Below are positions 44,761 through 64,000 of a stretch of DNA of 64,000 bases, piece after piece. The notes beneath the pieces were generated by a model. It was not told the DNA's origin. It saw only the letters and a program-made list of their open reading frames with translations, and ran no database searches. Numbering within the stretch: the stretch's first letter is position 1; each line of letters opens with the position of its first letter. The stretch spans positions 1 through 64,000 of the forward strand of contig NW_026991471.1 of NCBI RefSeq assembly GCF_036370855.1. The letters are read 5' to 3'. This stretch comes from Dromaius novaehollandiae. Its lineage: Eukaryota > Chordata > Aves > Casuariiformes > Dromaiidae. A program made the translations under genes and the position numbers.

Positions 44761-45090
44761 CAGCCTGCTGCTTAGGCTTCAGGGCTTACAGTTTATCTAA
44801 GGATTTAGCCCTTTTCCTTTATCAGTAAGTCATAAGCCCTGAACACTAACTGCAGGTCTTGGAACCCTAATAGTTGCCGAGACTTTAAAATTTATGGCTA
44901 AGGTTGGATTTTAAATTCTGTGCCCTGATCACTAAACGAGCAAACTGTAAACCCTGACTGATAAAGACTGAGCCCCACAAAAGAAAGGAATAAACTGTAA
45001 CTCCGGAGTGAGAGACCCTCAACAACAAACTAAACAATAAACCTTAAGTGAAAAATTCCAAACCCTCAGCTTTAAGCAACAAACACCAAA
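44761..45090. repeat. AT-richer patch with AACCCT-like motifs
   Basis: Short strings such as AACCCTAATAG, AAACCCTGACTG, AAGCCCTGAAC and CCAAACCCTCAG recur at about 25-60-bp spacing. They resemble telomeric CCCTAA, but no two perfect hexamers are in tandem. This could be a decayed telomere-associated repeat or an unrelated minisatellite. The evidence is weak. Confidence 0.3.
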
Positions 45091-46479
45091 GCACCCATAC
45101 GCATGAAAACAGTAAAGAGAAGGCAAGGAGTTTTGCCCACAGCTTAAGAAGTTTTCCCTTCCTCTAGAAGCACAGCAGAACGGGAAGACATGCACCAGAA
45201 TCACGTTACAGCTGCTGTTTAGAGGCTTGGTTTTAGCCACCATTCAAATGTGAGCATGTGCAAGAATCACTCCACAGGACTGCACTAGGCTGCACTTGCA
45301 CTGAACCTACCTGAAGCACTGCAAGCACTAATTCATCTCCGGGTCAGACAATTAATATTTTTGGTCCTCTCAGCTCCATGGGCAAACATCCACAGCCAGT
45401 GACACCAGTGACCACCTAGGGAACAATCACCTCGCACCTCCCAGCACTGCTCACATATGATGCAGCCCAGGACTTAGCTGTGTCCACGCTGCAAGTCAGA
45501 GCTCACTCTCCATGGCCAGCCGCGCATCTCCGCAGAGCTCCCAGCTGTGACAAGGCTCCTTCGACTGCCCGACTGGGCTTCGGCACCTGCAAAGAGGCCA
45601 GAGCAGTTAGTTAGAGGCCGGGCAACTGCACAGCCCTCCTAGAACTACTCCCTAGTCCAAGGCCCGTAATTGTTCCCACAGTTATGACTGACCCTCCGTG
45701 CTGCTTCAGTCACCCTCTCTGGCTCCATTTCATCACAAAGATGTCACAGCAGCTCTCACGGACAGGCAGGCTCGCTCAGGCACCCGGCCGCCTCCAGCCT
45801 TTGCTAGATGGTCCTCCGCAGGGAAACTCTGCCTCTGATGGACACTCTCAGAAAGCACCGTCCAGCCAAGGCAGGATAAAAAGTAAGGCCTCCAAAACCT
45901 CCAAACCCTGGAGAGATGGAGCTGATGGGAAACTGACTTGTGCTACCAGTACTGTAGATTATGGCTTTGCTGTGTACTACGGTGCTGTTGCTCATACACA
46001 TGTAACCCCATTTCTCTGCTATAGCAAAGTTACTGTTGTAGCTGGCTCCTGAAAGAAACAGTAACTTGCGAAAACGAAAATCCCAGGTAAGGCAGTTGCA
46101 TACTTAAGACATGAGTTGTGAAGGACCTTTACTCTCAAAGTACAAACAATACTGGAACCTCTGGACTTCAAAGAAGGAAGGTCTAGAAGGTTTAGGGCCC
46201 AACACTAATAATGCTAGAAACAGAAATTGTTTGGAGGGACCAGAACAGCAAAGAGAAAGGAGTTCCAAGGAAAGAAACAAGCCAGAAGCTATGTAAATGA
46301 CTGCATTCATCAGGAAGCGATGGCAGGGGTGGGGTGGGTGTGCGTGTTGACAGCACAGCATATCCCCTCAGGAAGCACTAAATCAACAACATGGGTTGAG
46401 CTGTAGACATAGGGAAGACACCACTTTGCATAAAGGCAGACCTGACAGAAAAGTGGGCTCGATGCCAGCATCGCAATCA
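45091..46479. other. Single-copy sequence, no feature recognised
   Basis: Mixed-composition DNA with no tandem repeat, clear exon or RNA gene. Open frames near 45,684-46,052 and 46,104-46,361 are short and lack recognisable domains. A stretch near 46,130-46,300 is purine-rich. Confidence 0.5.
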
Positions 46480-46915
46480 CAACTCAAGCTGCACCACGTG
46501 ACAGCCCTGGCTGCGCGCAGGCAGACAAGAGGCAGTAACTGCAGACCGCGCTGACGAGTAGGACAGACAGCAGCAGCAGCTCCAGACCGCCCTACCGCGA
46601 GCGCCTGTCCTAACGCCCAAGGTCTCGGAGCCTCTGCTGCTCTCTGCCTCCGTGACACCTTCCCCAGGAGCCTCTTCGCTGCCTGCCGCGTACCCCACGG
46701 CATCTCTAGCCCGCTAGCGCTCCCCCACTGCACAGCCACAGCCCCGCGCCTCCGCGGGCAGAGTCCCCGCGGAGGTGTCCGACGTGACCCGAACCAGACC
46801 GACCGACGACACCCTCCGGGCGCTGCCGATCACCATCTCTGCCGAGCGCCGACCACCTCTCGCCACCCGCCGCACCAGACAAAACGCAAAGGAACGACAG
46901 ACCTCCACCTGGACG
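46480..46915. promoter_or_regulatory. Small CpG-rich block with a hairpin
   Basis: CpG density rises from about 46,500. At 46,750-46,757 and 46,767-46,774 the sequences CTCCGCGG and CCGCGGAG form a perfect 8-bp inverted repeat around a 9-bp loop. The block sits directly upstream of the purine-rich minisatellite. It may be a minor CpG island; no core promoter element is obvious. Confidence 0.4.
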
Positions 46916-47730
46916 CGGGGACAGGGGGGAGAACAAAAGAAAAGAGGGGCAGAGAGCTTGGCAGATGGATGGAGGGAGAAAGAAAGAGAGGGACAGAGAG
47001 CCGGCCCCAGGGTCTGGGCACTGGACAAAGGAAGAGAAAGAGAGGGACAGAGGGCCACACAGATGGAGGGAGGGCTGCACAGAGGACCGGGGAGCAGAAG
47101 AGAGAAAAATGGGGAAGGCGAGACGGCCAGAGGAACGGCAAGGGAGCAACAGAGAAGGGGGGAGAACCGGAGAGAGGAACGGGGACAGGAAGAGAGGGAC
47201 AGGGAGCCAGTAGGAGCGATGGGAAGAGGACGAGAACGACGAAGAGCTGGCCAGAAAGGTGGAGAGAGAAAAAGAGGGAGGGCAATTCAGACAGAGAGAT
47301 GGGACAAAACAGGGGAAAAGAGGGATAGGGAGGCAAATAGATGGATGAGGAGCTGAGCAGAGGGATGGAAATAGAGAGAGATGGCTGGAGGGGTGGACAG
47401 AGGGCTGGGAAGGCAAAGAGAAGTACAGGCAGAAAGGCAGACGAGAGCGGCAGACGGATGGGGAGCCGCACGGAAGGACAGCGGGCAGGTACTGGGATAG
47501 GAAGAGGAAGAGGACGATGAAGAGCTGGATAGAGCGATAGAGAGCCAGTTAGATGGACGCAGATATTGTCACAGAGATGGAAAGAGTACAAGAGGGATGG
47601 GGGAGCTGGGCAGAGGAACGAGTAGCTAAACAAAGGGATGGGGCACTGGACAGAGCCACGGGGAAAGAAAGAGAAGGATGGAGCGCTGGACAGAGGGGCA
47701 GGGAGCGGAACCGGATGGATCCCGACAGCC
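46916..47730 (+). repeat. Purine-rich minisatellite of about 40 bp
   Basis: A GCTGG[A/G]CAGAGG-type anchor recurs at 40-bp steps (47605, 47645, 47685), with GAAAGAGAGGGACAGAG and GATGGAGGGAG between. The plus strand is almost wholly purine for hundreds of bases. Copies are degenerate. Open frames on both strands (Arg/Glu/Lys-rich on plus, Ser/Pro/Leu-rich on minus) reflect composition, not coding. Such tracts can form triplex or R-loop structures. Confidence 0.75.
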
Positions 47731-50369
47731 TGGCTCGCCATGCTCCGACTCCACCCCACCGGCTGAGCCCGCAGCGCTCTCTGCGCACCGCTGTGCCCAA
47801 AGTCCGCTCGTGGGCCTGCTCACCCGTTTCCCTACGGCTCCGGGGTGTCTGTGGGAGCGAGGGTGCACACACGGGCCCAGGCCGGGGAGGAACCTCGCGT
47901 TCAGTCACAGCATTTTACCATTCCTCGTGCATTAGCCCCTCTCAGATGCTCAACACCAAACGCCCTCAGCCCGTAACAACTTCAGTACCCGCGGCACCTA
48001 GTTTTTCCACGCTCTCAAATCTTCCTTGCTCTTTCCCGTCTTGTTTGAAAACCCTCCCAGACCCCTTCTGTACTTACATGCTTCCTCAAAACAGCATCAC
48101 CAAAGTCAACAAAAAGGGCCGAGCTGCATCCCTTCGAGTTGCTGGCCCTCAGAACAGCATCCTGCAAGTGAATCAAGCCACCAAGGTCACTGGGAGATTC
48201 TCCTTTTAGAGCTTTCTTCCCCCAAAGCTTTAATGATGGCTCCCTAACCTGGGCAAATGCAGAGCCTCCCTTAAGCACTGCGGCAGTTTTTACTCTGGCA
48301 TCCCAAGTTGCTGCTAGGCAGCGAAGCAAGGCAAAGACGGGTGCGGTCACAGCTGACCCATCTAGCCACGAAAATTCTTATTTTAGGCGTCACTGGTCAT
48401 TCCAGGTAAACAGACCAAAACAGAGCTCCAAACAGACAGGCGAGGCTTCGCACAGACCTCGTGGCCCAGCTAGCAACAGTAAGACTCTGTCTTACTGAAG
48501 ACTCTGGGCTACCAGTCGCTATCCCCCCCTCCTTTGCCGGTCCATGCATCGCGGCTTATTACCCGCGAGTCCGGTAAGGACGCTGCCGACCTTCCTGTGG
48601 CCGAAGCCTCCTCGTCGGGACCGGGCGGAGAACCTTTCTGCTGGCATTTGAATTCTCCTGGAAGCTCTCGACGCGTGATAACTTACAAAGGTCCGAGAGC
48701 GGTGGTAGCCTGTAGTTCTTCACGGCAGCACACAGTCGTTCCCCGAGGTCCTGAACGCCTACGATTAACACAGTTTATCAAAACAAAAATACTACTGCTA
48801 CAGGGTGTAAAGGCAAGCTAAAATTTCCGCAGCCAAAGAAAACCCCTTCGCGTCTGACACAACGAGCCACACGCACCAGCGCCTATAGCTCGAGGCTAGC
48901 AACCCCTCCTGGGCGACGTTCTTCTGGCAGGCTGCGGATCTGAACTCCTCCATCTCGCCTAAGAGTCTCCGCTGGGACACAGCAACTTTGCCAGCCAGGG
49001 CTCGTTGACGGAGGCGTAGTAAAATCCATCAGGGAGGGAGCAAAGCAAAAAAAAAAAAAAAACAAACCAAGAAGAAAAAGAAAAAAAGAAAAAGATCAAA
49101 GCTCTGCAGAAAATCATAAGAATCCAAAGTTGTTTATAAGCACAAAAGTGGATCCAATATACACACTCAAGCAAGGTAAACAAGAATACGCAAGCCACAA
49201 GTACCGCTTCCCCTAACCCCTGTTCTGAGAGCTATGAAGACAGTCGGGCTTGCCGCGAAAGGGAAGTCAGACTAAGTAGCCGCTAGAGATCAACCTCTCG
49301 GAAACCTCCTGCGTCCGCGTTTTTGGCGCAACCGTGCTCTGCCCCTCAGTCAATTCAGACGCGCACAAGAAGAGCCGCTGCTTGTAACACTTGCACAGCA
49401 ACTGCCCCCCTGCCCCCGCTCGTTAAGATCAGCGCCCACTGCGCCACTCGGATAGATGATACTCCGCTGTCTCTTCATTTCCCTGACGTGATTACTTTAG
49501 AGAGAACTGAATAGATTGGATGGCCCCTGCGCGATCAAAGCTAAAAGTCTCAAAGACGGTTACAGCCCACATCGCTGCTGAACAGTCTTTCTCACAGCCA
49601 GAGACTTTTTGTTCCACCCCCAAAGGGGACGTAAAGGTGAGGCGACCGGCACCCGCTTTCCTTTACTGCCGTTTTCTAGTGGTGCTGCTCCCACGCAGTC
49701 AGCAGATGTGGAAAGCATTACCGAAAAAGGCTTTCCTTGTCCTGGGAATTTGAGGGCAGGAGGTTTTATAGCCACTTCTTCCAGTTCAGTGAAAGCAGAG
49801 TCACGTTCCTCATCCCAGCTCCCTTTCCGACTCCCTCCCAGTACTTTCCACCGTGGTCTGCTGACACCGGCAAAGCCACCTTAATGCTGCTGGAGGAAAC
49901 TAAATCCTCCTACAATTGCTCTAAGCGGGAACTGGTGAGAAGGAGCCTTAATTCCATGAGGCTTCAACCTATCTACTGTCATCCCGTCTCCCCAAATACC
50001 ATTGCCAGGTAACTAACCCGGGGCTTGCGCTGATTGAGCCTTCCTGAAATCGATCTCTCAGTTTTACACTTCAGACCCTTCTCTCGCTCCCTTCCTCTTC
50101 AGTAGCTCTGGTCACTTGACCACCACTCCCCCAAGATAATAATTTGCTGTCTCGCAGCTCGTGAAGCATGACGCTTCACAGGCACGTAAAGTCACACACA
50201 TGGAGACACATGTACGCACAGCACTTCTCATAATGCATACAGACCTTCCGTTATACGCTGGCGATCTATTATTCGGATCGCTATTAATGGCGCTCCTTCC
50301 TTGCCAGGAGGAACGGGCTTTCCCTTTTTCTGGCAGAGGAAGACAGCTTTCACTTGGCTCCCTTGGATT
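47731..50369. other. Single-copy region, no gene recognised
   Basis: GC-moderate sequence. It contains an A-rich run at 49,047-49,062 followed by an A/G-rich stretch to about 49,095. CpGs are moderately frequent at 47,730-47,900 and 48,530-48,700. Several open frames of 60-110 codons exist, none with a recognisable domain or a consistent splice pattern. I cannot assign repeats or RNA genes here. Confidence 0.5.
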
Positions 50370-50620
50370 CTATTACTTCAGCTTGCTCACGTTTTTTACT
50401 CTCTTCAACCTCAGCCGTGGCAATTAATCTAAGAGAGCATTCGTTCTGTCTTTCCCTTTCCACGTACGCGCGTGCAGTAACAACGCAAAATACAAACAGC
50501 CAAAGCAAAGCTAAGGCAGATACAGGGAACAGCAGCCACAGGGCAGGAACGGGTTACTCAGTCCTCAGCGCTGCCTCGGGGAGGCCGAAATAACTGCTAA
50601 CGGTCATTAGCGATACTTAC

Positions 50621-50787
50621 CCTAGTTACCCGTGCCAGAACGCCTCCTCCTGTAGCAGTTCCTGGTGATATCAAGGGGCCGCTGCATTCTGGCTTCCTTG
50701 TTTCATCCCGTCCCTTCGGTATTAACCGCAAGCAAACGCTCGTCCGTCTCTTCTCCTCGTCAGCATTTGCTGTCCTTGGTTCCATCT
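50621..50787 (-). other. Exon-like segment conserved in all 933-bp units
   Basis: On the minus strand, CTTCCTTACAG precedes the segment (acceptor-like) and GTAAGTATC follows it (an excellent donor match), leaving a 167-bp putative exon. The overlapping 82-codon frame starts with Met-His-Lys-Pro upstream and stays open through the donor. It is intact in all seven units: 50597, 51531, 52464, 59522, 60436, 61365 and 62299 are the left ends, the fifth with an in-frame 3-bp deletion. Most differences between units are amino-acid changing, so selection on a protein is not shown. It could be an exon of a repeat-derived transcript or coincidence. Confidence 0.35.
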
Positions 50788-51038
50788 CTGTAAGGAAGCG
50801 ATAAACTCGCGTTTTACTTCCAGTGAAACGCTTAGGTTTATGCATGATCTTTTTCTCTTTACCCTGTTTTCTTTTTCCCCCTTTTTTTTCTTTTTTTCCT
50901 TCTTCTTTTCCTTAAGGGAAAGGTCTTAATACGGCACTTTGCACCATACGTTGCAGGGTAAACGGTCTGGAAACGTTACACACAGCAATTAGGGCTAGGT
51001 TATTAGGCAGGCGGGCACGTCGCCTAATACCTTCCTAA

Positions 51039-51047
51039 CGCCATCTT
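51039..51047 (-). promoter_or_regulatory. YY1-like motif in the 933-bp unit
   Basis: CGCCATCTT on the plus strand is AAGATGGCG on the minus strand, the core of the YY1 consensus. It occurs once per unit (also near 51,972, 52,906, 59,965, 60,876, 61,807 and 62,740), so the arrays present regularly spaced YY1-like sites. Binding is not demonstrable from sequence. Confidence 0.45.
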
Positions 51048-51517
51048 CCACGAAACCTTATTTTTATTCCGCTTCAGTGTTATTGTTACTGTTCGCAAAC
51101 CCTCGTATGCATGCGCTTAACCCACAACTCTCTCGGTCTTTAACTACGTGGAGGAACGACAGCCCTCGATTTGCCTGTCTCCCTTTCAGACCTATTACCT
51201 TTTTGAGACTGCTCCTAGCTTCCTCTTACTCTTGCATGCTGGCCTCACAGGCGACGACCAAAACGAACAACTGCATCGCTAGGTCTAGCCCCCTCTCTTC
51301 AAGATGTGCCCCTTCGGGGCTTACGTTTCTTGGTCTCTTCAACTTCAGCCGTGGCAATTAATCTAAAAAAGTAAGTATGACATCTATTCCTTTCCGTAGC
51401 TGCGTGTACGATAACAAAACAAAAGAGAAACAGCCAAAGCAAAGCTAAGGCAGATACAGGGAACAGCAGCCACAGGGCAGGAACGGGTTACTCAGTCCTC
51501 AGCGCTGCCTCGGGGAG

Positions 51518-52450
51518 GCCGAAATAACTGCTAACAGTCATTAGCGATACTTACCCTAGTTACCCGTGCCAGAACGCCTCCTCCTGTAGCAGTTCCTGGT
51601 GATATCGAGGGGCCGCTGCATTCTGGCTTCCTTGTTTCATCCCGTCCCTTCGGTATTAACCGCAAGCAAACGCTCGTCCGTCTCTTCTCCTCGTCAGCAT
51701 TTGCTGTCCTTGGTTCCATCTCTGTAAGGAAGCGATAAACTCGCGTTTTACTTCCAGTGAAACGCTTAGGTTTATGCATGATCTTTTTCTCTTTACCCTG
51801 TTTTCTTTTTCCCCCTTTTTTTCTTTTTTTCCTTCTTCTTTTCCTTAAGGGAAAGGTCTTAATACGGCACTTTGCACCATACGTTGCAGGGTAAACGGTC
51901 TGGAAACGTTACACACAGCAATTAGGGCTAGGTTATTAGGCAGGCGGGCACGTCGCCTAATACCTTCCTAACGCCATCTTCCACGAAACCTTATTTTTAT
52001 TCCGCTTCAGTGTTATTGTTACTGTTCGCAAACCCTCGTATGCATGCGCTTAACCCACAACTCTCTCGGTCTTTAACTACGTGGAGGAACGACAGCCCTC
52101 GATTTGCCTGTCTCCCTTTCAGACCTATTACCTTTTTGAGACTGCTCCTAGCTTCCTCTTACTCTTGCACGCTGGCCTCACAGGCGACGACCAAAACGAA
52201 CAACTGGATCGCTAGGTCTAGCCCCCTCTCTTCAAGATGTGCCCCTTCGGGGCTTACGTTTCTTGGTCTCTTCAACTTCAGCCGTGGCAATTAATCTAAA
52301 AAAGTAAGTATGACATCTATTCCTTTCCGTAGCTGCGCGTACGATAACAAAACAAAAGAGAAACAGCCAAAGCAAAGCTAAGGCAGATACAGGGAACAGC
52401 AGCCACAGGGCAGGAACGGGTTACTCAGTCCTCAGCGCTGCCTCGGGGAG
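51518..52450 (+). repeat. 933-bp unit, array 1 copy 2
   Basis: Same layout as copy 1. The minus-strand 82-codon frame (51531-51779) is intact with a Leu-to-Ser change. The pyrimidine tract is one or two bases shorter. The YY1-like motif lies near 51,972. Confidence 0.9.
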
Positions 52451-53134
52451 GCCGAAATAACTGCTAACGGTCATCAGCGATACTTACCCTAGTTACCCGT
52501 GCCAGAACGCCTCCTCCTGTAGCAGTTCCTGGTGATATCAAGGGGCCGCTGCATTCTGGCTTCCTTGTTTCATCCCGTCCCTTCGGTATTAACCACAAGC
52601 AAACGCTCGTCCGTCTCTTCTCCTCGTCAGCATTTGCTGTCCTTGGTTCCATCTCTGTAAGGAAGCGATAAACTCGCGTTTTACTTCCAGTGAAACGCTT
52701 AGGTTTATGCATGATCTTTTTCTCTTTACCCTGTTTTCTTTTTCCCCCTTTTTTTTCTTTTTTTCCTTCTTCTTTTCCTTAAGGGAAAGGTCTTAATACG
52801 GCACTTTGCACCATACGTTGCAGGGTAAACAGTCTGGAAACGTTACACACAGCAATTAGGGCTAGGTTATTAGGCAGGCGGGCACGTCGCCTAATACCTT
52901 CCTAACGCCATCTTCCACGAAACCTTATTTTTATTCCGCTTCAGTGTTATTGTTACTGTTCGCAAACCCTCGTATGCATGCGCTTAACCCACAACTCTCT
53001 CGGTCTTTAACTACGTGGAGGAACGACAGCCCTCGATTTGCGTGTCTCCCTTTCAAACCTATTACCTTTTTGAGACTGCTCCTAGCTTCCTCTTACTCTT
53101 GCATGCTGGCCTCACAGGCGACGACCAAAATGAA
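52451..53134 (+). repeat. 933-bp unit, array 1 copy 3, truncated
   Basis: About 684 bp. The minus-strand frame (52464-52712) is intact with an Arg-to-Trp change. Similarity to the other units ends shortly after GGCGACGACCAAAA, where the sequence changes to ATGAACCACCGGATCC and enters block B. The equivalent junction in array 2 is at about 62,968. Confidence 0.88.
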
Positions 53135-53274
53135 CCACCGGATCCCCAGGTCTTGCTGCTTCTCTTCGAGATGTCCCCCTTCGGTGGGCTACCTTGCCAA
53201 ACAAACCAAAAAGACTGCCGAGGCCGCGAGGGTACCAGATTTTCAGACCGCTTCTCCGAGGCTTTCGGGGTGAC

Positions 53275-53282
53275 TGACGTCA
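53275..53282. promoter_or_regulatory. Palindromic CRE (TGACGTCA)
   Basis: A perfect TGACGTCA octamer, the full CREB/ATF site, with its CpG intact. It is also present in the second copy of block B at 63,109-63,116. It lies about 1 kb upstream of the CpG island and may belong to its promoter region. Confidence 0.6.
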
Positions 53283-53785
53283 CCGCTTCGCTTCACGTTA
53301 CTCACAGCTACCTTCGTCTATTACTTAGGGCTAAACCTGTTTCTGTTTGCAGAGGGGCTTGTTGCTTGTTTAAACTTGACATATAGTCCATAACCTGCTC
53401 TGCATGCTCCCTAGTCCCTTCTGCTTTTGCAACACTTGTGGTAATTCAAGGCGGTAATTAAGAGTCCCCATTGTCCCATAGGCTGGAGCGAGACATTGCT
53501 GCTGCTCTGAGGAGGTGCCTAAAAGCCACGCTGTTTTCGCTAGCATCACTGGGGCTTCCCAGAGCCCATCGGTGTTCTCTTTTGCTCTTCCCGAGCCTTT
53601 TAGGTTTTTTAGGCTATTCCTTAGCCCTCCATTTTAGGGCAATGTTCTCCTTAAGCACTGCGCACAGCACGATTATCCCAGATCAGCCACATCGTGCACA
53701 CACAGAGGCTTCTGAGAGGCGGCTCAGAAGAAAAGAGAGAGAAGTCTCTTTGTCATCCGCACATTCACCCGTCAACACTCTTCAC

Positions 53786-53807
53786 CAGGAAGTGCTGTAA
53801 CTTCCTG
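53786..53807. promoter_or_regulatory. Inverted ETS site pair
   Basis: CAGGAAGT and ACTTCCTG form a perfect 8-bp inverted repeat around the 6-bp spacer GCTGTA. Each arm holds a GGAA ETS core. Closely spaced inverted GGAA sites can bind ETS dimers. The pair is preserved in the second block B at 63,620-63,641. Confidence 0.55.
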
Positions 53808-54701
53808 TTTCTCTAAAGCGGGACTGAGTCGAGGCGGAGACGCACATCGCACCCCATCTTTGTTAGAACGCCTCACTGCTGCGGGGACTGGGTCTGGCAG
53901 CAGTTTGAGGAATGTTTGGGGCCTTGCACAGAGTGCAGGGGAAGGTCTGGAGTCAGTGACAACATTGCGGCAGGGCTCGGAGGCGTTTTGGGGCCTGTGG
54001 GGGTGTTGGGGCAGGATTTGTGGGTGGTTTAATGGCTCTGGGGGGGCTGGTTGCAGGAAGGGTGGGACTCTGCGGGGCCCTCAGGGCAGGGGTGCCATCC
54101 CAGATGCGTAGTGAGCACATAGGGGTGCCCTACGTGGCTCTCAGCTCGGCGGGAGCAGCCACCGGTCTCCCACCCCACCAGACAGGGGAGCGGGGCGGGG
54201 GGGGGGGGGGGAGAGGAGGTGGAGGGATCTATGAGCTCGCAGAGAACGCCAGAGGAGGCAGCAGGGAACTCCCCAAGGACCCCGCGTCCCAGACGGGAGG
54301 AGGCATCAGGCTGCCGTGCCGCTGCTAGAGACATCCAGACCCCCGCGCAGGCACCCCACACACACTCCTCCAGGCTGCGTCCGCAGGGGCGAGCGCACGC
54401 CCCGGCCCGCGCTGGGGAGGAACCGGGGCCCTACAGGCGACACACGCAAAAGGGAGAGTCAGAGCCGCGCTCCGGCAGACCCGGCGCGGCGCGGCGCGGC
54501 GCGGACCCCGGCCCGACTCCCCCCCCCGCCCCGCCGCCTCCACGCAGCGACGGCCCCGGCTGGCAGGACACAGCCCGACACCCGCGGCCACCCGAAGGCA
54601 CACGCTCGCCTCACCTCGCCTCACCGCGGCCCCCACATGCTCGACTCCAGCCCGCCTCTGCCCTCGCCCGCCGCCGTCCAGCCAAAACACCCGCCCTGCT
54701 C

Positions 54702-54713
54702 GCCGCCATCTTG
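54702..54713 (-). promoter_or_regulatory. YY1 consensus in the CpG island
   Basis: GCCGCCATCTTG is the reverse complement of the canonical CAAGATGGCGGC YY1 motif. In vertebrate CpG-island promoters this motif commonly lies just downstream of the transcription start and is strand-biased. That would suggest a start nearby, with the 39-bp minisatellite immediately to the right. Confidence 0.65.
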
Positions 54714-54714
54714 C

Positions 54715-54975
54715 CCGCCGCCGCACCGCGCGTGCGCCGGCCGCCCAGGGCTCGCGCCGCCGCACCGCGCGTGCGCCGGCCGCCCAGGGCTCGCGCCGCC
54801 GCACCGCGCGTGCGCCGGCCGCCCAGGGCTCGCGCCGCCGCACCGCGCGTGCGCCGGCCGCCCAGGGCTCGCGCCGCCGCACCGCGCGTGCGCCGGCCGC
54901 CCAGGGCTCGCGCCGCCGCACCGCGCGTGCGCCGGCCGCCCAGGGCTCGCGCCGCCGCACCGCGCGTGCGCGGCC
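54715..54975 (+). repeat. 39-bp GC-rich minisatellite with one NRF1 site per unit
   Basis: Six full units and a seventh partial one, virtually identical, at a 39-bp period. Each contains CGCGCGTGCGC, a perfect match to the NRF1 consensus YGCGCRTGCGC, starting at 54727, 54766, 54805, 54844, 54883, 54922 and 54961. The remainder of the unit is CGGCCGCCCAGGGCTCGCG. The 39-bp length keeps every frame open and accounts for the long spurious reading frames. Confidence 0.95.
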
Positions 54976-54988
54976 CAGGACCGCGAGA

Positions 54989-55078
54989 GAGGGGCGGGGG
55001 GAGCGCGAGGGGCGGGGGGAGCGCGAGGGGCGGGGGGAGCGCGAGGGGCGGGGGGAGCGCGAGGGGCGGGGGGAGCGG
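54989..55078 (+). repeat. 18-bp GC-box minisatellite
   Basis: Five tandem units of GAGGGGCGGGGGGAGCGC (starts 54989, 55007, 55025, 55043, 55061; the last differs at its final base). Each contains GGGGCGGGG, a consensus Sp1/KLF GC box. The runs of G also make G-quadruplex formation plausible on the plus strand. Confidence 0.93.
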
Positions 55079-55533
55079 AGCGCGAGGCAGCCCAGACCCG
55101 CAATGGCCCCACCCTCGCGTGGTCGCAGCGCCGCGCTGCAGCCGGCCGGCTCCCGCGCGCCAACCGCAGCCCGCCGCGCCACCCCGGCGCTCAGGCCGAG
55201 CAGCGAGCGCCCCGAGGCTGCTCTGCCCGCGCCCGAGAGAGCGGCGGGCATCAGCGAGCAGGCGCTGGGGCTGCCCCGGGGAGAGAGCGCCGCGGAGCAG
55301 CTCCGAGACGGCACTGCCCGTCCCCGCGCCCCCAGGAAGCACCGAGAAGGAAAAGCCCTCTCGGGAAAAGCGCTCCCGGTCCGTGAGCACCGGGCAGGGG
55401 GCACGAGCGCGGCCCCTGCGCTTACCCGTCCCCGAGAGAGCGCAGAGTAGCGGCCAACACGGCGACCGGCAGCGCGCACGTGTGCGCCGGCTGCCCGCAA
55501 CGGTCTCCGTACGCAGCGGTGGCCGCCGGCGGC

Positions 55534-55566
55534 TGCAGTGCTGCCTTGTCGACACGCGAGGGCAGC
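55534..55566 (+). promoter_or_regulatory. CTCF-type composite site 1
   Basis: A 33-bp match to the long CTCF pattern: an upstream TGCAGTGCT element followed, after the known spacing, by the core ACACGCGAGGGCAGC. The core agrees with the CTCF consensus at the GAGGGCAGC positions and tolerates two mismatches. Orientation is the same as site 2. It lies at the right edge of the CpG island. Confidence 0.6.
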
Positions 55567-55587
55567 CGTGAGCGCGCCGGAACGCAA

Positions 55588-55598
55588 TGCGCATGCGC
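55588..55598. promoter_or_regulatory. NRF1 palindrome
   Basis: TGCGCATGCGC is the perfect palindromic NRF1 site. It sits between the two CTCF-type composites and is an eighth NRF1 site in the island, outside the minisatellite. Confidence 0.65.
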
Positions 55599-55615
55599 GC
55601 CCCCCCCCTCCCGCG

Positions 55616-55648
55616 TGCAGTGCCGCCTTTCAGACACGCGAGGGCAGC
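55616..55648 (+). promoter_or_regulatory. CTCF-type composite site 2
   Basis: Again a 33-bp composite: upstream element TGCAGTGCC, then core ACACGCGAGGGCAGC. It starts 82 bp from site 1 in the same orientation. Beyond the motif the two sites share only patchy similarity, so the core may be constrained. Tandem same-strand CTCF sites are typical of insulators and loop anchors. Confidence 0.62.
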
Positions 55649-55700
55649 AAGGAGCAGGGCGCAGCGCTTTCCTGCCCCCCTTGCAAAATACTCGCTAGAC

Positions 55701-56362
55701 AAAAACGGCTTGGGCTCCTCCCGAACGCTTACCTGGCTTCATTACTACAGCTATTAGGAACCGAAGTGCATAGCCTTCTAGCAAAGGGAACGACCGTCTT
55801 TTCAAAACTTCCCGCGACTCCCCAGAATTGTCACTGCCTTGCATCAGCAGCCAGCTTCTTCCAACCCAGCCGCAAGAAACATTTTGCCTTCCCGGCAGAA
55901 CTTTCTGCTCCCCGGGGGGTCCAAAGGAAACCCGTCACTCACTACTGTCTGTCAAAACGTACCGGAAGCCCTCAAATACAGGACAAGACGCCTTCTCTAA
56001 GGAAGCTGACTACTAGGTCTGCTTCACGGCAGCTTCTCCCCAGTATCAGGGCCCACTCAATAAACAAAATAGGACGAGAAATGTCTTAATCTGCTCCAAG
56101 TGCTTTCGTATAAGAGAACAACATCAAAACGAGGTATTATTGCATTTAGCCTCCACTACACGTGCTACCCCAGCGCCACGGACTTGCTTTAAAGCATCAG
56201 TGACGTACGCGGTCTGGCAGTAATTAATATTCACAGAATGAATACGCACTCGATCGAGTACGGGTGTTCATAAAAAGCTTTGCCAGTGCGTCGCTAGGTA
56301 ACAAACCTAGACAAGCAGCTATTTGCCCTGATCCTTCGGCTTACATTTCTTCTGCCGGATGT
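55701..56362. other. Single-copy spacer, no feature recognised
   Basis: Ordinary composition between the CpG island and duplicon A'. A frame of 183 codons enters from the island on the plus strand (55,538-56,089) but has no recognisable domain and no clear coding signature. No repeat or RNA gene is seen. Confidence 0.5.
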
Positions 56363-56685
56363 AGTCAAACGTACCTGCATGCGGTGGCCTTGCGAGGCAG
56401 TGACACGGTGTCCGTGGGGTGGCTGTTCCAGGGTCTCTCGGGCTGTTCCAGGGTCCTCGGACAGCAACGGTGCTGGTCGACTTTCCCTTGCGCTGCACAG
56501 CAGGACAGCTCCGCACCGTGCCCTCCCAGCACCGCCACTCCTCCCAGCAGCTGCCTAACCGGCCCCAATCCTGAGCAAAGCTACGACCCCCAGGAGCCCG
56601 CAGCACCCCTCCTACTCTTCCCGCCCTCCCCATTTCCAAGAGGGACAGCCCCAGCCCCCGGGGACAACCCTGCGCCTGGTCACGC

Positions 56686-57267
56686 TGCTGTCCGAAAAGC
56701 GGATTCGTTGCCCGCTGTGCACTAAGCCAATAATGACACGCTCAGGAGAGACATTTGCTTATTTATTTCAGAGTTGTGCAAGCCTGGCTGCTCGGTGTTT
56801 TCCCCACAAATCAAGCGCAACTTCCCCCCCTCCCCCCCGCCCCGGCTTTCCAAGTAGCATTTATACAAGTTGCAAGGTTTGCAACTTTCCCTCTTACACC
56901 GGTTGGTTAGTGATTTACATACAATTCTAATATTGCTTACACACCATTTTAAAACTACGCATGCTCAGGGGAGGGGTCTTCACCCGGGCACAGGTCTTTC
57001 TGACCTATGGGCGTGATTTTCTTGTATTATAATGAGGACAGTTCAGTTCGGGGATACCTCGAATTCCTTTGCTAAATCGGCAACGTCTACATAGAAAACA
57101 AAACATTTTGATTTACTATTTCTTTAAGGCTTTAGCACTTCTAGCATGGCCTTGATTAAAGAATTATTTCCTCCCAGGAAATTGGGGGGGGGGGGGGTGT
57201 TCTCCTCATCTGCCTAGTTTAAACAGCAGGAACACTCTTTCTGAGCTTCCAAGGTTGTCTTGCAACA
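56686..57267 (-). mobile_element. Probable solo LTR of an endogenous retrovirus
   Basis: This 582-bp segment is absent from duplicon A, where GGTCAC runs straight into ACCAGAGATGG. On the minus strand it starts TGTTGCAAG and ends GGACAGCA, giving the TG...CA ends of an LTR. It has a TATAAAT box (plus 56,870-56,876) and an AATAAA signal (56,762-56,767) about 100 bp downstream, leaving a short U5. Layout and wording resemble avian ERV LTRs, from memory only. No internal viral genes are present. The target-site duplication is not clear, so the ends may be off by a few bases. A 14-G run lies at 57,184-57,197. Confidence 0.7.
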
Positions 57268-57527
57268 CCATCGGAGATGGAAAACACTTCCTGCCCTGTA
57301 CCGGGGAAAAACAGGGGCATTCCACTGTCCCCCGTGACCTGTGGGGACTCAGGCGTGAGTGACACATGTCCAGTAAGGAACAGACCCAGCGGGCACTACA
57401 GCTCCTGGCCTGCCACGCGGCCGCCTGCTGGGAACCCCGCTGGCAGGGACCTGCCGCCGCCGCCCCCCCCCCCGCGGGGCCACCTCGAGAGGCGCAGCAT
57501 GGTCACCCAGTAGCCCCGCCTGAGAAG

Positions 57528-57547
57528 ACTACACCTCCCAGCATACC
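57528..57547 (+). promoter_or_regulatory. ZNF143-type motif 1 in duplicon A'
   Basis: ACTACACCTCCCAGCATACC matches the ZNF143 pattern ACTACAnnTCCCAnnATGC with one change near the end. It is preceded by GAGAAG in the position where the next modules carry CGGAAG. Confidence 0.6.
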
Positions 57548-57588
57548 GTGCACGCGAAAAGGGCGGCCCGGAAGCCCAGTGCCGGAAG

Positions 57589-57608
57589 ACTACCGCTCCC
57601 AGCATGCC
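57589..57608 (+). promoter_or_regulatory. ZNF143/ETS module 2 in duplicon A'
   Basis: ACTACCGCTCCCAGCATGCC, a strong ZNF143 motif, directly preceded by GCCGGAAG, an ETS/GABP core. It starts 61 bp after motif 1. Confidence 0.68.
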
Positions 57609-57652
57609 GCGCTCAGAACAAACAGGCCCCACCGGAAGCCCAGTGCCGGAAG

Positions 57653-57672
57653 ACTACTGCTCCCGGCATGCC
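57653..57672 (+). promoter_or_regulatory. ZNF143/ETS module 3 in duplicon A'
   Basis: ACTACTGCTCCCGGCATGCC, preceded by GCCGGAAG and by an additional CCGGAAGCCCAG. It starts 64 bp after module 2. The module has therefore been tandemly duplicated. The single motif in duplicon A (42,421) corresponds best to this or module 2. Confidence 0.65.
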
Positions 57673-58160
57673 GCGCCGAAAGCTACGGCTCCCCGCAGTC
57701 CCGCCCCCCAACGCCCGCCCCCCACCCGCAGCGCTGGGGCACCTTTGACCCTCGGCACATTCCGTTCCTTTCCGTCCCGCCCCCCTTCCCCTTCCCCCCT
57801 GTCCCCCCGGAAACGGCCGCAGAGCCCCGAGCGCGGCCCCGCCGGCCCCACCACCGGCCCGGGGCTCCCCCGACACCCCCGCGACCGGCCCCGCCTCAGC
57901 TCCGACACTGCCCCCGCCCCTCCACGACCCTCCTCCCCCCGCTCCCCGACACGCTCCCGAGCTGACACAGGAGACCCCCCCCCCCCCCCGCGCTCCTCCG
58001 ACCGCGCAGTAAACCGCACCACAGCCCCGGCGCACCCCCTTCCTCCCCCCGCCTCCGTGGCCCCGGGACGCTCCCAGCCGCCGGGACCCCCGGCACATGC
58101 GGGACCCGCAGCCTGCAGCGCGCCTCCCCCGGCCCCGCTCACCTCCTCCGCGGGGCGGCC
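57673..58160. promoter_or_regulatory. CpG island of duplicon A'
   Basis: GC- and CpG-rich sequence directly downstream of the ZNF143/ETS modules, with CCGTTCCTTTCCGTCCCGCC and repeated CCCCGG strings. With the modules it makes a credible CpG-island promoter. Frames open here on both strands are Pro/Arg/Gly-rich and carry no domain. Confidence 0.6.
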
Positions 58161-58479
58161 GCCGGGCTGGGCCCAAAGGGCCGTGCTCCGTGGCAGCTCC
58201 GCTGCCCAGCTCCGCTGCCCAGCTCCTGCCCCAGCGCCAGCTCCCCCCAACTGCGGCCCCAGCCCCCAAATGTGGGCCTGCCCTTGCCATCAGCCCCACC
58301 TGGGGCCTGTCCTGCCACCCAGCTCCCCCTGGCATTCATCCCAGCCCCAGGGCCCGCAGCTGTGGGCCTGCAGGAACTGGGCAGGGGGCCTGGCCATCAG
58401 CCCCTTCAGGGACAGCTGGGGCTGCCAGGGCAGCAGAGGCACCCCCACTCTCCTGACAGCAGCTTGCTGAGAGCTGAAG

Positions 58480-58870
58480 GGAGAGCCCTGCCTGGGGTGT
58501 AGAGTGCGGAAAGGGGAGTATGCGGAGCACAAGAGAACAAATCGAGAGCTCTGGGTGCAACACAAGTCAAGAAAAAAAAAAAAAAAAAAAGAACAACGAT
58601 AGAGCAAACAGAGTGACTCGGGGGGCACCAAAAGGAGGGCCCTGGGGCACACCCAGAAGCACCCAGAAAACTCCAGGACAGGAGAAAAAGCTAAACAGAG
58701 ACCTCTGCGGCGTGCCGCAAAACACACACGGGGCCACGGGGCGCACCGAAAGGCGCGCAGAGGGCTCGGGGGCAACCCAGAATGTGAACTGAGGGGTCCT
58801 GAGGGCATCAGAGGGCAAGTGCAGGGCTCTGGGGCAGACCAAAATACAGAGGAAGGGCCTTGGCGCACAC
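58480..58870 (+). repeat. 31-bp degenerate minisatellite in duplicon A'
   Basis: Counterpart of 43,540-43,930. It has the same GGGCTCTGGGGCA and GAGGGCAAGTGCAG phrases but keeps CG dinucleotides, such as GGCGCGCAGAGGGCTCGGGGG. The A-run at 58,572-58,590 (19 A) lies within it. Confidence 0.65.
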
Positions 58871-59476
58871 CAGAGGGGTCACCAGGCACGCCGCAGGGCT
58901 CAACGCGGCTGACAGGATGGCGCCTGCAGGCTGCCCCAGGCACACGAGCGACACTGCGGAGTGCCAAAAGCAAATCCGGGAGCGGTTCGGGGACCTCACG
59001 CAGCCCTGGAGGGGCTCTGGCAGCCCTCGCGATGAGGGGAAACACCCCCAAGAGCCCCGAGGGTCCAGGCAACGCAAGGGAAATTCCCCGCAGCTCTGGG
59101 AACAGCACCGGGCTCCCTGGCAAGCGCAGGCACTCCCAAGTACATGGGACTCGGGGACCAGCTCCCAGCCCCGGACACAATGCATAACCTCCTGCCTCAG
59201 GCATCGTGTTCAGGCAAACCGCCCTGGAGCTCGGCACCAGCGTGCCTCCCCTTACCTACGATATCCAAAGAGTCACCGCCGCACCAGCGTCTGTCCGTCC
59301 GTCCGTCCGTCGGGGAAGGGTCAGCTCCTGCCCCTGCCCTCGACGTGGCAGGTGTCCGAGTAGCCTCCCCCCAGTGCTTTTTCCTTCAGGGCCAGGATTC
59401 AGCTTGGAGAGCTGAGAGGAAAATGCCTGATCCCGCCTGCCTGCACTTCTGCCCTAACCCAGGCCAGAGCCCCTCA

Positions 59477-60422
59477 GGTTACTTAGTCCTCAGCGCTGCC
59501 TCGGGGAGGCCGAAATAACTGCTAACGGTCATTAGCGATACTTACCCTAGTTACCCGTGCCAGAACGCCTCCTCCTGTAGCAGTTCCTGGTGATATCGAG
59601 GGGCCGCTGCATTCTGGCTTCCTTGTTTCATCCCGTCCCTTCGGTATTAACCGCAAGCAAACGCTCGTCCGTCTCTTCTCCTCGTCAGCATTTGCTGTCC
59701 TTGGTTCCATCTCTGTAAGGAAGCGATAAACTCGCGTTTTACTTCCAGTGAAACGCTTAGGTTTATGCATGATCTTTTTCTCTTTACCCTGTTTTCTTTT
59801 TCCCCCTTTTTTTTCTTTTTTTCCTTCTTCTTTTCCTTAAGGGAAAGGTCTTAATACGGCACTTTGCACCATACGTTGCAGGGTAAACGGTCTGGAAACG
59901 TTACACACAGCAATTAGGGCTAGGTTATTAGGCAGGCGGGCACGTCGCCTAATACCTACCTAACGCCATCTTCCACGAAACCTTATTTTTATTCCGCTTC
60001 AGTGTTATTGTTACTGTTCGCAAACCCTCGTATGCATGCGCTTAACCGACAACTCTCTCGGTCTTTAACTACGTGGAGGAACGACAGCCCTCGATTTGCC
60101 TGTCTCCCTTTCAAACCTATTACCTTTTTGAGACTGCTCCTAGCTTCCTCTTACTCTTGCATGCTGGCCTCACAGGCGACGACCAAAACGAACAACTGCA
60201 TCGCTAGGTCTAGCCCCCTCTCTTCAAGATGTGCCCCTTCGGGGCTTACGTTTCTTGGTCTCTTCAACTTCAGCCGTGGCAATTAATCTAAAAAAGTAAG
60301 TATGACATCTATTCCTTTCCGTAGCTGCGCGTACGATAACAAAACAAAAGAAAGGCAGATACAGGGAACAGCAGCCACAGGGTAGGAACGGGTTACTCAG
60401 TCCTCAGCGCTGCCTCGGGGAG
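59477..60422 (+). repeat. 933-bp unit, array 2 copy 1
   Basis: Entire unit with a shortened right end. The exon-like minus-strand frame is intact (59522-59770). The YY1-like motif is near 59,965. Confidence 0.88.
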
Positions 60423-61351
60423 GCCGAAATAACTGCTAACGGTCATTAGCGATACTTACCCTAGTTACCCATGCCAGAACGCCTCCTCCTGTAGCAGTTC
60501 CTGGTGATATCGAGGGGCCGCTGCATTCTGGCTTCCTTGTTTCATCCCGTCCCTTCGGTATTAACCACAAGCAAACGCTCGTCCGTCTCTTCTCGTCAGC
60601 ATTTGCTGTCCTTGGTTCCATCTCTGTAAGGAAGCGATAAACTCGCGTTTTACTTCCAGTGAAACGCTTAGGTTTATGCATGATCTTTTTCTCTTTACCC
60701 TGTTTTCTTTTTCCCCCTTTTTTTTCTTTTTTTCCTTCTTCTTTTCCTTAAGGGAAAGGTCTTAATACGGCACTTTGCACCATACGTTGCAGGGTAAACG
60801 GTCTGGAAACGTTACACACAGCAATTAGGGCTAGGTTATTAGGCAGGCGGGCACGTCGCCTAATACCTACCTAACGCCATCTTCCACGAAACCTTATTTT
60901 TATTCCGCTTCAGTGTTATTGTTACTGTTCGCAAACCCTCGTATGCATGCGCTTAACCCACAACTCTCGGTCTTTAACTACGTGGAGGAACGACAGCCCT
61001 CGATTTGCCTGTCTCCCTTTCAAACCTATTACCTTTTTGAGACTGCTCCTAGCTTCCTCTTACTCTTGCATGCTGGCCTCACAGGCGACGACCAAAACGA
61101 ACAACTGGATCGCTAGGTCTAGCCCCCTCTCTTCAAGATGTGCCCCTTCGGGGCTTACGTTTCTTGGTCTCTTCAACTTCAGCCGTGGCAATTAATCTAA
61201 AAAAGTAAGTATGACATCTATTCCTTTCCGTAGCTGCGTGTACGATAACAAAACAAAAGAGAAACAGCCAAAGCAAAGCTAAGGCAGATACAGGCAACAG
61301 CAGCCACAGGGTAGGAACGGGTTACTCAGTCCTCAGCGCTGCCTCGGGGAG
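60423..61351 (+). repeat. 933-bp unit, array 2 copy 2
   Basis: 929 bp. A 3-bp deletion near 60,595 keeps the minus-strand frame open (60436-60681, 81 codons). A 2-bp deletion near 60,966 (CTCTCGG instead of CTCTCTCGG) shifts the plus-strand frame that is open in most other units. This speaks against the plus-strand frame being coding. Confidence 0.88.
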
Positions 61352-62285
61352 GCCGAAATAACTGCTAACGGTCATCAGCGATACTTACCCTAGTTACCCG
61401 TGCCAGAACGCCTCCTCCTGTAGCAGTTCCTGGTGATATCGAGGGGCCGCTGCATTCTGGCTTCCTTGTTTCATCCCGTCCCTTCGGTATTAACCGCAAG
61501 CAAACGCTCGTCCGTCTCTTCTCCTCGTCAGCATTTGCTGTCCTCGGTTCCATCTCTGTAAGGAAGCGATGAACTCGCGTTTTACTTCCAGTGAAACGCT
61601 TAGGTTTATGCATGATCTTTTTCTCTTTACCCTGTTTTCTTTTTCCCCCTTTTTTTTCTTTTTTTCCTTCTTCTTTTCCTTAAGGGAAAGGTCTTAATAC
61701 GGCACTTTGCACCATACGTTGCAGGGTAAACGGTCTGGAAACGTTACACACAGCAATTAGGGCTAGGTTATTAGGCAGGCGGGCACGTCGCCTAATACCT
61801 ACCTAACGCCATCTTCCACGAAACCTTATTTTTATTCCGCTTCAGTGTTATTGTTACTGTTCGCAAACCCTCGTATGCATGCACTTAACCGACAACTCTC
61901 TCGGTCTTTAACTACGTGGAGGAATGACAGCCCTCGATTTGCCTGTCTCCCTTTCAAACCTATTACCTTTTTGAGACTGCTCCTAGCTTCCTCTTACTCT
62001 TGCATGCTGGCCTCACAGGCGACGACCAAAACGAACAACTGCATCGCTAGGTCTAGCCCCCTCTCTTCAAGATGTGCCCCTTCGGGGCTTACGTTTCTTG
62101 GTCTCTTCAACTTCAGCCGTGGCAATTAATCTAAAAAAGTAAGTATGACATCTATTCCTTTCCGTAGCTGCGTGTACGATAACAAAACAAAACAGAAACA
62201 GCCAAAGCAAAGCTAAGGCAGATACAGGGAACAGCAGCCACAGGGCAGGAACGGGTTACTCAGTCCTCAGCGCTGCCTCGGGGAG
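61352..62285 (+). repeat. 933-bp unit, array 2 copy 3
   Basis: 934 bp with the standard layout. The minus-strand frame (61365-61613) is intact with a Tyr-to-His change. Confidence 0.88.
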
Positions 62286-62968
62286 GCCGAAATAACTGCT
62301 AACGGTCATTAGCGATACTTACCCTAGTTACCCGTGCCAGAACGCCTCCTCCTGTAGCAGTTCCTGGTGATATCGAGGGGCCGCTGCATTCTGGCTTCCT
62401 TGTTTCATCCCGTCCCTTCGGTATTAACCGCAAGCAAACGCTCGTCCGTCTCTTCTCTTCGTCAGCATTTGCTGTCCTCGGTTCCATATCTGTAAGGAAG
62501 CGATAAACTCGCGTTTTACTTCCAGTGAAACGCTTAGGTTTATGCATGATCTTTTTCTCTTTACCCTGTTTTCTTTTTCCCCCTTTTTTTCTTTTTTTCC
62601 TTCTTCTTTTCCTTAAGGGAAAGGTCTTAATACGGCACTTTGCACCATACGTTGCAGGGTAAACGGTCTGGAAACGTTACACACAGCAATTAGGGCTAGG
62701 TTATTAGGCAGGCGGGCACGTCGCCTAATACCTTCCTAACGCCATCTTCCACGAAACCTTATTTTTATTCCGCTTCAGTGTTATTGTTACTGTTCGCAAA
62801 CCCTCGTATGCATGCGCTTAACCCACAACTCTCTCGGTCTTTAACTACGTGGAGGAACGACAGCCCTCGATTTGCGTGTCTCCCTTTCAAACCTATTACC
62901 TTTTTGAGACTGCTCCTAGCTTCCTCTTACTCTTGCATGCTGGCCTCACAGGCGACGACCAAAATGAA
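62286..62968 (+). repeat. 933-bp unit, array 2 copy 4, truncated
   Basis: About 683 bp. It matches the truncated third unit of array 1 up to the same junction, including the private GATTTGCGTGTC variant near 62,872. The truncated unit and block B were therefore duplicated together. The minus-strand frame is intact (62299-62547). Confidence 0.88.
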
Positions 62969-64000
62969 CCACCGGATCCCCAGGTCTTGCTGCTTCTCTT
63001 CGAGATGTCCCCCTTCGGTGGGCTACCTTGCCAAACAAACCAAAAAGACTGCCGAGGCCGCGAGGGTACCAGATTTTCAGACCGCTTCTCCGAGGCTTTC
63101 GGGGTGACTGACGTCACCGCTTCGCTTCACGTTACTCACAGCTACCTTCCTCTATTACTTAGGGCTAAACCTGTTTCTGTCTGCAGAGGGGCTTGTTGCT
63201 TGTTTAAACTTGACATATAGTCCATAACCTGCTCTGCATGCTCCCTAGTCCCTTCTGCTTTTGCAACACTTGTGGTAATTCAAGGCGGTAATTAAGAGTC
63301 CCCATTGTCCCATAGGCTGGAGCGAGACATTGCTGCTGCTCTGAGGAGGTGCCTAAAAGCCACGCTGTTTTCGCTAGCATCACTGGGGCTTCCCAGAGCC
63401 CATCGGTGTTCTCTTTTGCTCTTCCCGAGCCTTTTAGGTTTTTTAGGCTATTCCTTAGCCCTCCATTTTAGGGCAATGTTCTCCTTAAGCACTGCGCACA
63501 GCACGATTATCCCAGATCAGCCACATCGTGCACACACAGAGGCTTCTGAGAGGCGGCTCAGAAGAAAAGAGAGAGAAGTCTCTTTGTCATCCGCACATTC
63601 ACCCGTCAACACTCTTCACCAGGAAGTGCTGTAACTTCCTGTTTCTCTAAAGCGGGACTGAGTCGAGGCGGAGACGCACATCGCACCCCATCTTTGTTAG
63701 AACGCCTCACTGCTGCGGGCACTGGGTCTGGCAGCAGTTTGAGGAAAGTTTGGGGCCTTGCACAGAGTGCAGGGGAAGGTCTGGAGTCAGTGACAACATT
63801 GCGGCAGGGCTCGGAGGCGTTTTGGGGCCTGTGGGGGTGTTGGGGCAGGATTTGTGGGTGGTTTAATGGCTCTGGGGGGGCTGGTTGCAGGAAGGGTGGG
63901 ACTCTGCGGGGCCCTCAGGGCAGGGGTGCCATCCCAGATGCGTAGTGAGCACATGGGGTGCCCTACGTGGCTCTCAGCTCGGCGGGAGCAGCCACCGGTC
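62969..64000. repeat. Block B, second copy (cut by window end)
   Basis: Near-identical to 53,135-54,167. The CRE is at 63,109-63,116 and the ETS palindrome at 63,620-63,641. The window ends at the point equivalent to 54,167, just before the first copy enters the CpG island. Whether the island is repeated cannot be seen. Confidence 0.9.

What the first reader, a model, noticed from the sequence alone, without database searches (positions are those of the whole stretch)
54168..55700. CpG island built from arrays of transcription-factor sites (7+1 NRF1, 5 GC boxes, YY1, 2 CTCF)
Two minisatellites inside the island are in effect motif amplifiers. A 39-bp unit gives seven perfect NRF1 sites and an 18-bp unit gives five GC boxes, followed by a further NRF1 palindrome and two long CTCF-type sites. 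It lies between copies of a macrosatellite. Human subtelomeric TERRA promoters also combine short CpG-rich tandem repeats with CTCF sites. This may be an independent, undescribed promoter/insulator of that kind. Site presence is seen; function is inferred.
Basis: partly seen in the sequence, partly recalled or inferred. Interest (0 to 1): 0.82.

Follow-up and report, generated by a model that had tools for sequence, protein, structure and literature searches.

The report
Promoter island inside a giant repeat
A short, very CpG-rich stretch with repeated switch-protein landing sites looks like a gene-type promoter that forms part of a long repeated DNA block and points into the neighbouring repeats; whether it is switched on has not been measured.

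Summary
The listed elements are real: seven NRF1 10-mer cores in a 39-bp array (54716-54975), five GC boxes in an 18-bp array (54989-55077), a YY1 site (54702-54712), an NRF1 palindrome (55588-55599) and two CTCF-type sites (cores 55549-55567, 55631-55649). Corrections: one of seven array sites matches the 12-mer NRF1 consensus; the CTCF cores are weak alone, but both carry the upstream CTCF motif at one spacing, the only two such composites in 64 kb. The start 54168 is not biological: 50385-54167 recurs at 60244-64000, its last 982 aligned bases differ at 4 sites, and the match ends with the window. The island probably belongs to a ~9.83-kb tandem unit. Best reading: a CpG-island promoter pointing to the minus strand (NRF1 array, YY1/ATG, donor 54615), firing into 934-bp repeats that each hold an exon-like acceptor/donor pair on that strand. 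The TERRA parallel holds in design, but the window has no tandem TTAGGG. Closest in kind: DXZ4/FIRRE-type transcribed repeats. Transcription, binding and methylation are untested; the species was not identified.

The parts
54210..55825 (.). CpG island (GC 0.76, 240 CpG)
   Evidence: Sliding 200-bp CpG-island scan; o/e 1.0 over 54168-55700
54716..54975 (-). 39-bp minisatellite, 6.7 copies, 7 NRF1 10-mer cores on the minus strand
   Evidence: TRF; motif scan; unit comparison
54989..55077 (+). 18-bp minisatellite, 4.9 copies, 5 GC boxes GGGGCGGGG
54702..54712 (-). YY1-type site AAGATGGCGGC containing an ATG (54709)
54615..54709 (-). Predicted first-exon piece: ATG 54709 to splice donor GAG|GTGAGG (last exon base 54615)
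   Evidence: Donor scan with frequencies from memory; translation; inferred
55588..55599 (.). NRF1 palindrome (12-mer consensus on both strands)
55534..55567 (+). CTCF-type composite site 1: TGCAGTGCT 55534-55542, core 55549-55567
55616..55649 (+). CTCF-type composite site 2: TGCAGTGCC 55616-55624, core 55631-55649
50385..53184 (.). Array of three 934-bp units on the side the promoter points to
50621..50787 (-). Exon-like module (acceptor TTCCTTACAG| to donor |GTAAGT, 167 nt) in the first 934-bp unit; also 51555-51721, 52488-52654, 59546-59712, 60460-60623 (164 nt), 62323-62489; the unit 61153-62085 keeps both AG and GT but was not called at the threshold
   Evidence: inferred
53185..54167 (.). 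Non-934 flank of the island, repeated at 63019-64000 with 4 differences in 982 aligned bases and one gap column
59477..63018 (.). Second 934-bp array (one partial and three longer units)
63019..64000 (.). Copy of the island's left flank, cut by the window end; a second island is predicted just beyond
   Evidence: the second island is inferred
56363..59476 (.). Segment with an older diverged copy at 41792-44610 (BLAST pieces 67-86% identical)

Best explanation
The island is an NRF1/Sp1/YY1-type CpG-island promoter built into a ~9.83-kb macrosatellite unit. A likely main start lies at about 54712-54725 on the minus strand, between the last NRF1 copy and the YY1 site. RNA runs leftwards through a short first exon into the 934-bp array and may be spliced to the exon-like module in each repeat, giving a mostly noncoding RNA with repeated exons. 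The two same-direction CTCF-type sites on the far side would anchor a boundary. Shown: the sites, their order, spacing and strand, the duplication, and the splice-like signals. Inferred: binding, start site, splicing, insulation, and the island in the next unit.
For: Order on one strand: NRF1 array, then YY1 (nearest centres about 25 bp apart), ATG, donor. In human cells NRF1 sites activate starts downstream of them and YY1 works at or just downstream of the start (PMC11269187, passages). GC skew is -0.31 on the plus strand in 54451-54715, so G-rich on the predicted transcript. Enrichment holds after arrays are collapsed. CTCF composites: the only 2 in the window, 0 of 1000 shuffles with two. 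Duplicated flank 978 of 982 identical at offset 9834. Exon-like pair on the same strand in 6 of 7 units at threshold, AG and GT kept in 7 of 7; 9 of 1500 shuffles of one unit give such a pair. CpG o/e 1.0 in the island and 0.92-0.95 in the 934 arrays against 0.20 in the 162-bp satellite. In the older duplicated segment, CpG of the island-side copy reads TG/CA in the satellite-side copy at 72 places, the reverse at 15.
Against: No transcript, binding or methylation data. A stronger minus-strand donor (CAG|GTAAGC, 55733, score 11.3 against 10.2 at 54615) lies on the other side of the arrays, and another at 55426 (9.0), so a start further right is possible. The GC skew does not persist (+0.05 over 54168-54450, +0.22 over 53700-54167 on the plus strand). 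No minus-strand acceptor scores over 11.5, while acceptor-like sites over 8 are common in 44000-54600 (25 against 7.5 expected from base-shuffled DNA), so weak ones mean little. The CpG asymmetry is not significant against the GpC control (29 to 14; Fisher p 0.07). CpG transitions are about five-fold raised in the 934 units (16 of 672 against 11 of 2371), so those arrays have been methylated in the germline at least part of the time. The island has no second copy in the window to test, and only one full unit is seen. No protein family above cut-off was found in the frames scanned. Splice and CTCF values are from memory and thresholds were set after looking.
Confidence: 0.48

Rival explanations
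1. An ordinary CpG-island promoter of a gene, single or recently duplicated, whose two minisatellites grew by replication slippage; the extra NRF1 and GC-box copies and the neighbouring repeats have no special role. The first exon may start right of the arrays and end at donor 55733.
For: YY1 downstream of the start is common in housekeeping promoters (conserved in 52% of mammalian ribosomal-protein promoters, PMC554972, passages). Array units are identical, as expected from recent slippage. The best minus-strand donor near the island is 55733.
Against: No recognisable protein exons in the frames scanned. The duplicated flank puts the island inside a repeat unit.
Confidence: 0.29
2. Silent repeat DNA: a GC-rich minisatellite cluster inside satellite heterochromatin, methylated and unbound, its CpGs kept only because it is young or homogenised.
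For: Methylation-type CpG decay is detectable in the neighbouring 934 arrays. A 40-kb satellite with 4051-bp higher-order units adjoins.
Against: Ordered NRF1/YY1/ATG/donor and a paired CTCF composite are not expected of random GC-rich DNA.
Confidence: 0.17
3. A TERRA-type promoter: a subtelomeric CpG island that transcribes a chromosome end.
For: Short CpG-rich tandem repeats with NRF1 sites plus CTCF sites, as in human 61-29-37 promoters (PMC6600276 and PMC12242772, passages).
Against: No two adjacent TTAGGG in 64 kb. The predicted direction is into the 934-bp and then the 162-bp arrays. The CTCF-type cores lie about 575 and 655 bp from the array on the side away from the predicted start, whereas in human the CTCF sites are reported about 300 bp downstream of the 29-bp repeats.
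Confidence: 0.05
4. The arrays are coding: a protein with 13-residue and 6-residue repeats.
For: 39 and 18 are both multiples of three, and long frames run through.
Against: All six frames are open across the arrays. No homologue at E 0.001 or better for the minus-frame query 54614-55735, though only the 7993 candidates sharing most words were scored. The units are identical at DNA level, so no codon signal can be read.
Confidence: 0.04

Closest known systems
FIRRE / ICCE / DXZ4 tandem repeats of the mammalian X (PMC6985041, passages)
   Same: Tandem repeats inside transcribed units, CpG hypomethylation with paired CTCF-YY1 sites in the published loci; here CpG-rich tandem DNA with CTCF-type and YY1-type sites. 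FIRRE yields nuclear noncoding RNAs.
   Different: Unit ~9.83 kb here with nested 934-bp repeats; an NRF1 array is not mentioned in the passages read; no sequence comparison with these loci was made; copy number unknown.
Human TERRA promoters, 61-29-37 repeats (PMC6600276, PMC12242772, passages)
   Same: CpG island made partly of short tandem repeats that carry NRF1 sites, with CTCF sites near.
   Different: No tandem TTAGGG in the window; 39- and 18-bp units; CTCF-type sites on the other side of the array from the predicted start.
Clustered CTCF sites (2xCTSes) at promoters bound by CTCF and BORIS (PMC4562119, passages)
   Same: Two closely spaced CTCF-type motifs in a promoter-like island, same strand, 82 bp start to start.
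   Different: Binding unknown; cores score low; whether the source species has BORIS is unknown.
NRF1/YY1 promoters (position rules in PMC11269187, passages)
   Same: NRF1 upstream, YY1 at the start or just downstream.
   Different: Seven tandem NRF1 copies rather than one or two (the usual number is from memory).

Membership tests
CpG island | At least 200 bp, GC at least 0.55, CpG o/e at least 0.65 | tested here: met
   54210-55825
NRF1/YY1 promoter | NRF1 consensus upstream and YY1 downstream on one strand | tested here: met
   the start site itself is inferred
NRF1/YY1 promoter | Transcription start between them | not testable with these tools
   No transcript data for the source
CTCF site with upstream motif | Core plus TGCAGTNCC-type motif at close fixed spacing | tested here: met
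   2 of 2 with a six-base gap to the matrix start; CTCF test substrates printed in PMC11194110 (passages) have the same build with the core one base closer
CTCF site with upstream motif | High-scoring core | tested here: inconclusive
   8.0 and 8.7 of 26.1 bits, matrix from memory
TERRA promoter | Next to and directed at a TTAGGG tract | tested here: inconclusive
TERRA promoter | Homology to 61-29-37 repeats | not tested
   No human sequence at hand
Macrosatellite (DXZ4/FIRRE kind) | Kilobase-size units in tandem | tested here: inconclusive
   934-bp arrays: yes; ~9.83-kb unit: one full and one cut copy
Macrosatellite (DXZ4/FIRRE kind) | CTCF and promoter in each unit | not testable with these tools
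   The next unit lies beyond 64000; the genome search did not complete

The most novel reading that the evidence does not exclude
A macrosatellite that is its own gene: each ~9.83-kb unit carries an NRF1-array promoter whose strength varies with array length, a paired CTCF boundary, and a block of 934-bp repeats that act as repeated exons of a long RNA. This would be a FIRRE/DXZ4-like system of independent origin.
Probability: 0.2. Interest if true: 0.75.

Novelty: new variant of a known kind. Interest (0 to 1): 0.5.

Why it matters
If transcribed, it would show that the pairing of short NRF1-bearing repeats with CTCF sites, known from human chromosome ends, can arise in another setting, and would give a natural series of array lengths for asking how copy number of an activator site sets promoter output and protects repeat DNA from methylation.

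Tried and rejected
Protein coding: Pfam scans of ten long ORFs and of frame translations with stops as X. The latter covered 44611-50384, 50385-53184, 53185-56362 and 56363-59476 in six frames, 40128-42600 on plus and 40300-44610 on minus; 1-40127, 42601-44610 on plus, 40128-40299 on minus and 59477-64000 were not scanned this way. Result: no family above its cut-off; one retrovirus-like RT/RNase H fragment (E 1.8e-5) and two weaker hits (E 5.4e-4 and 0.042), all below cut-off. Three protein searches gave no match at E 0.001 or better (searches scored the 7991 and 7993 candidates sharing most words; one search had 140 candidates). Rfam at gathering thresholds: 0 matches.

Species: a CR1 tail written from memory gave only two 11-base chance matches; a 34-base piece of the 39-bp unit had no exact match in viral contigs. 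A bird source was my guess from composition and is not established; the passages I saw of two chicken papers (PMC9974502, PMC4301066) do not mention 162-bp or 934-bp repeats. In a literature search for these lengths (18 papers hold 3 or more terms, 12 listed) one listed paper holds '162 bp': the Nile crocodile satellites, consensus lengths 31 to 162 bp (PMC9656864, passages). That is a length only; no sequence was compared, and a reptile source is not excluded. A 41-bp origin of the 162-bp satellite was not supported.

CpG asymmetry as proof of germline protection: dropped, because against the GpC control p is 0.07.

Full report
What is there. The island holds two short arrays. The 39-bp array at 54716-54975 has six identical units and a partial seventh; all seven carry GCGCAYGCGC on the minus strand, and only the seventh also fits the 12-mer consensus, as does the palindrome at 55588-55599. 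The 18-bp array at 54989-55077 gives five GC boxes; two more lie elsewhere in the island. One YY1-type AAGATGGCGGC lies at 54702-54712 on the minus strand. The motif consensuses are from memory. With each array collapsed to one unit, NRF1 10-mer, GC box and YY1 counts still exceed 1000 dinucleotide shuffles, so the enrichment is not only copy number. In that control the kept 39-bp unit was the seventh, which lifts the 12-mer count to 2; with a regular unit it is 1.

CTCF. With a matrix written from memory the two named cores score 8.0 and 8.7 bits of 26.1; another island site at 54585 scores higher, 11.9. What sets the named pair apart is the upstream motif: TGCAGTGCT and TGCAGTGCC, each ending six bases before the matrix start, both on the plus strand. 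By that rule, set after seeing the sites, they are the only 2 in 64 kb; 10 of 1000 shuffled islands gave one or more, none gave two. Published CTCF test substrates have the same build with the core one base closer (PMC11194110, passages). An upstream motif, there given as resembling CAGCTGTTCC, is reported as a usual part of insulator-type CTCF sites (PMC12885311, passages). The two elements look like diverged repeats of each other, 82 bp start to start, in which the upstream motif and core are the best-kept parts.

Setting. The stretch 50385-54167 matches 60244-64000 at 97.6%. Its last part, outside the 934-bp array, differs at 4 of 982 aligned positions with one gap column, and the match ends exactly with the window. 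The offset is 9833-9834 bp. A much older copy of 56363-59472 lies at 41792-44610. To the left is a 162-bp satellite with 4051-bp higher-order units: two neighbouring pairs differ at 1 of 4051 bases each, while over 651-35000 the match at lag 4051 is 0.87, so the array is not uniform.

Direction. On the minus strand the order is NRF1 array, YY1 with an ATG at 54709, and a donor GAG|GTGAGG at 54615. The nearest NRF1 and YY1 centres are about 25 bp apart. In human cells NRF1 sites activate when upstream of the start and reduce initiation when downstream, and YY1 works at or just downstream of the start (PMC11269187, passages). That predicts a minus-strand start at about 54712-54725. The stretch just downstream is G-rich on the transcript strand (plus-strand skew -0.31 over 54451-54715), but the skew does not persist further left. 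Against a single start there, a stronger minus-strand donor lies at 55733, to the right of the arrays, and a weaker one at 55426.

The 934-bp units. Each holds, on that same minus strand, an acceptor TTCCTTACAG and a donor AGG|GTAAGT 167 nt apart (164 in one unit). 6 of 7 pass the thresholds, which were chosen after looking, and the seventh keeps both AG and GT. 9 of 1500 shuffles of one unit, one strand, give such a pair. Acceptor-like sites over a lower threshold are common in this region (25 against 7.5 expected). One frame is open through the module in all six that passed, and the one length change is a multiple of three. That is weak support for coding: the peptides differ at several residues, and variable columns inside (6 of 167) are not significantly fewer than outside (58 of 766; p 0.09). 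The usual module length, 167, is not a multiple of three, so repeated modules would not keep one frame; a noncoding RNA is more likely. Each unit also has an NRF1 half-site (6 of 7) about 70 nt before an AAGATGGC core (7 of 7) in the same orientation; both motifs together occur in 2 of 3000 shuffles of one unit.

Methylation record. CpG o/e is 1.0 in the island, 0.92 and 0.95 in the two 934 arrays, 0.20 in the 162-bp satellite. Against a simple reading of unmethylated DNA, the 934 units show CpG transitions at 16 of 672 positions against 11 of 2371 elsewhere (Fisher p 3e-5). The older duplicated segment lost CpG mostly on the satellite side (72 against 15), but a GpC control also leans that way (29 against 14) and the difference from it is not significant (p 0.07). 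The island itself could not be tested.

Compared with the known. Membership has no support, for want of a telomeric tract in the window. DXZ4, FIRRE and ICCE (PMC6985041, passages) are nearer: tandem repeats in transcribed units with CpG hypomethylation and paired CTCF-YY1 sites.

Verdict. A real promoter-like island, probably one part of a larger repeat unit; a new variant of a known kind; activity unknown.

Noticed in passing
49641-49817, minus: Retrovirus-like reverse transcriptase/RNase H fragment (PF17919, E 1.8e-5, below the family cut-off), next to the 934-bp array.
   Followed up: partly
50385-53184 and 59477-63018: Each 934-bp unit carries a minus-strand NRF1 half-site (6 of 7) about 70 nt before an AAGATGGC core (7 of 7), an order like the island's.
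   Followed up: partly
1-40127: 162-bp satellite with 4051-bp higher-order units; two neighbouring pairs of units differ at 1 of 4051 bases each, with opposite-strand-type units listed near 298-652, 35460-35814 and 39342-39694.
   Followed up: no
46401-48071: Two further CpG-rich stretches with a purine-rich, degenerate minisatellite on the plus strand.
   Followed up: no
44398 and 59256, minus: A splice-donor-like GTAAGG is kept in both of the old diverged segment copies.
   Followed up: no
55733, minus: The strongest donor-like site near the island (CAG|GTAAGC, 11.3) lies right of the arrays and could end an alternative first exon.
   Followed up: no
   Followed up: no
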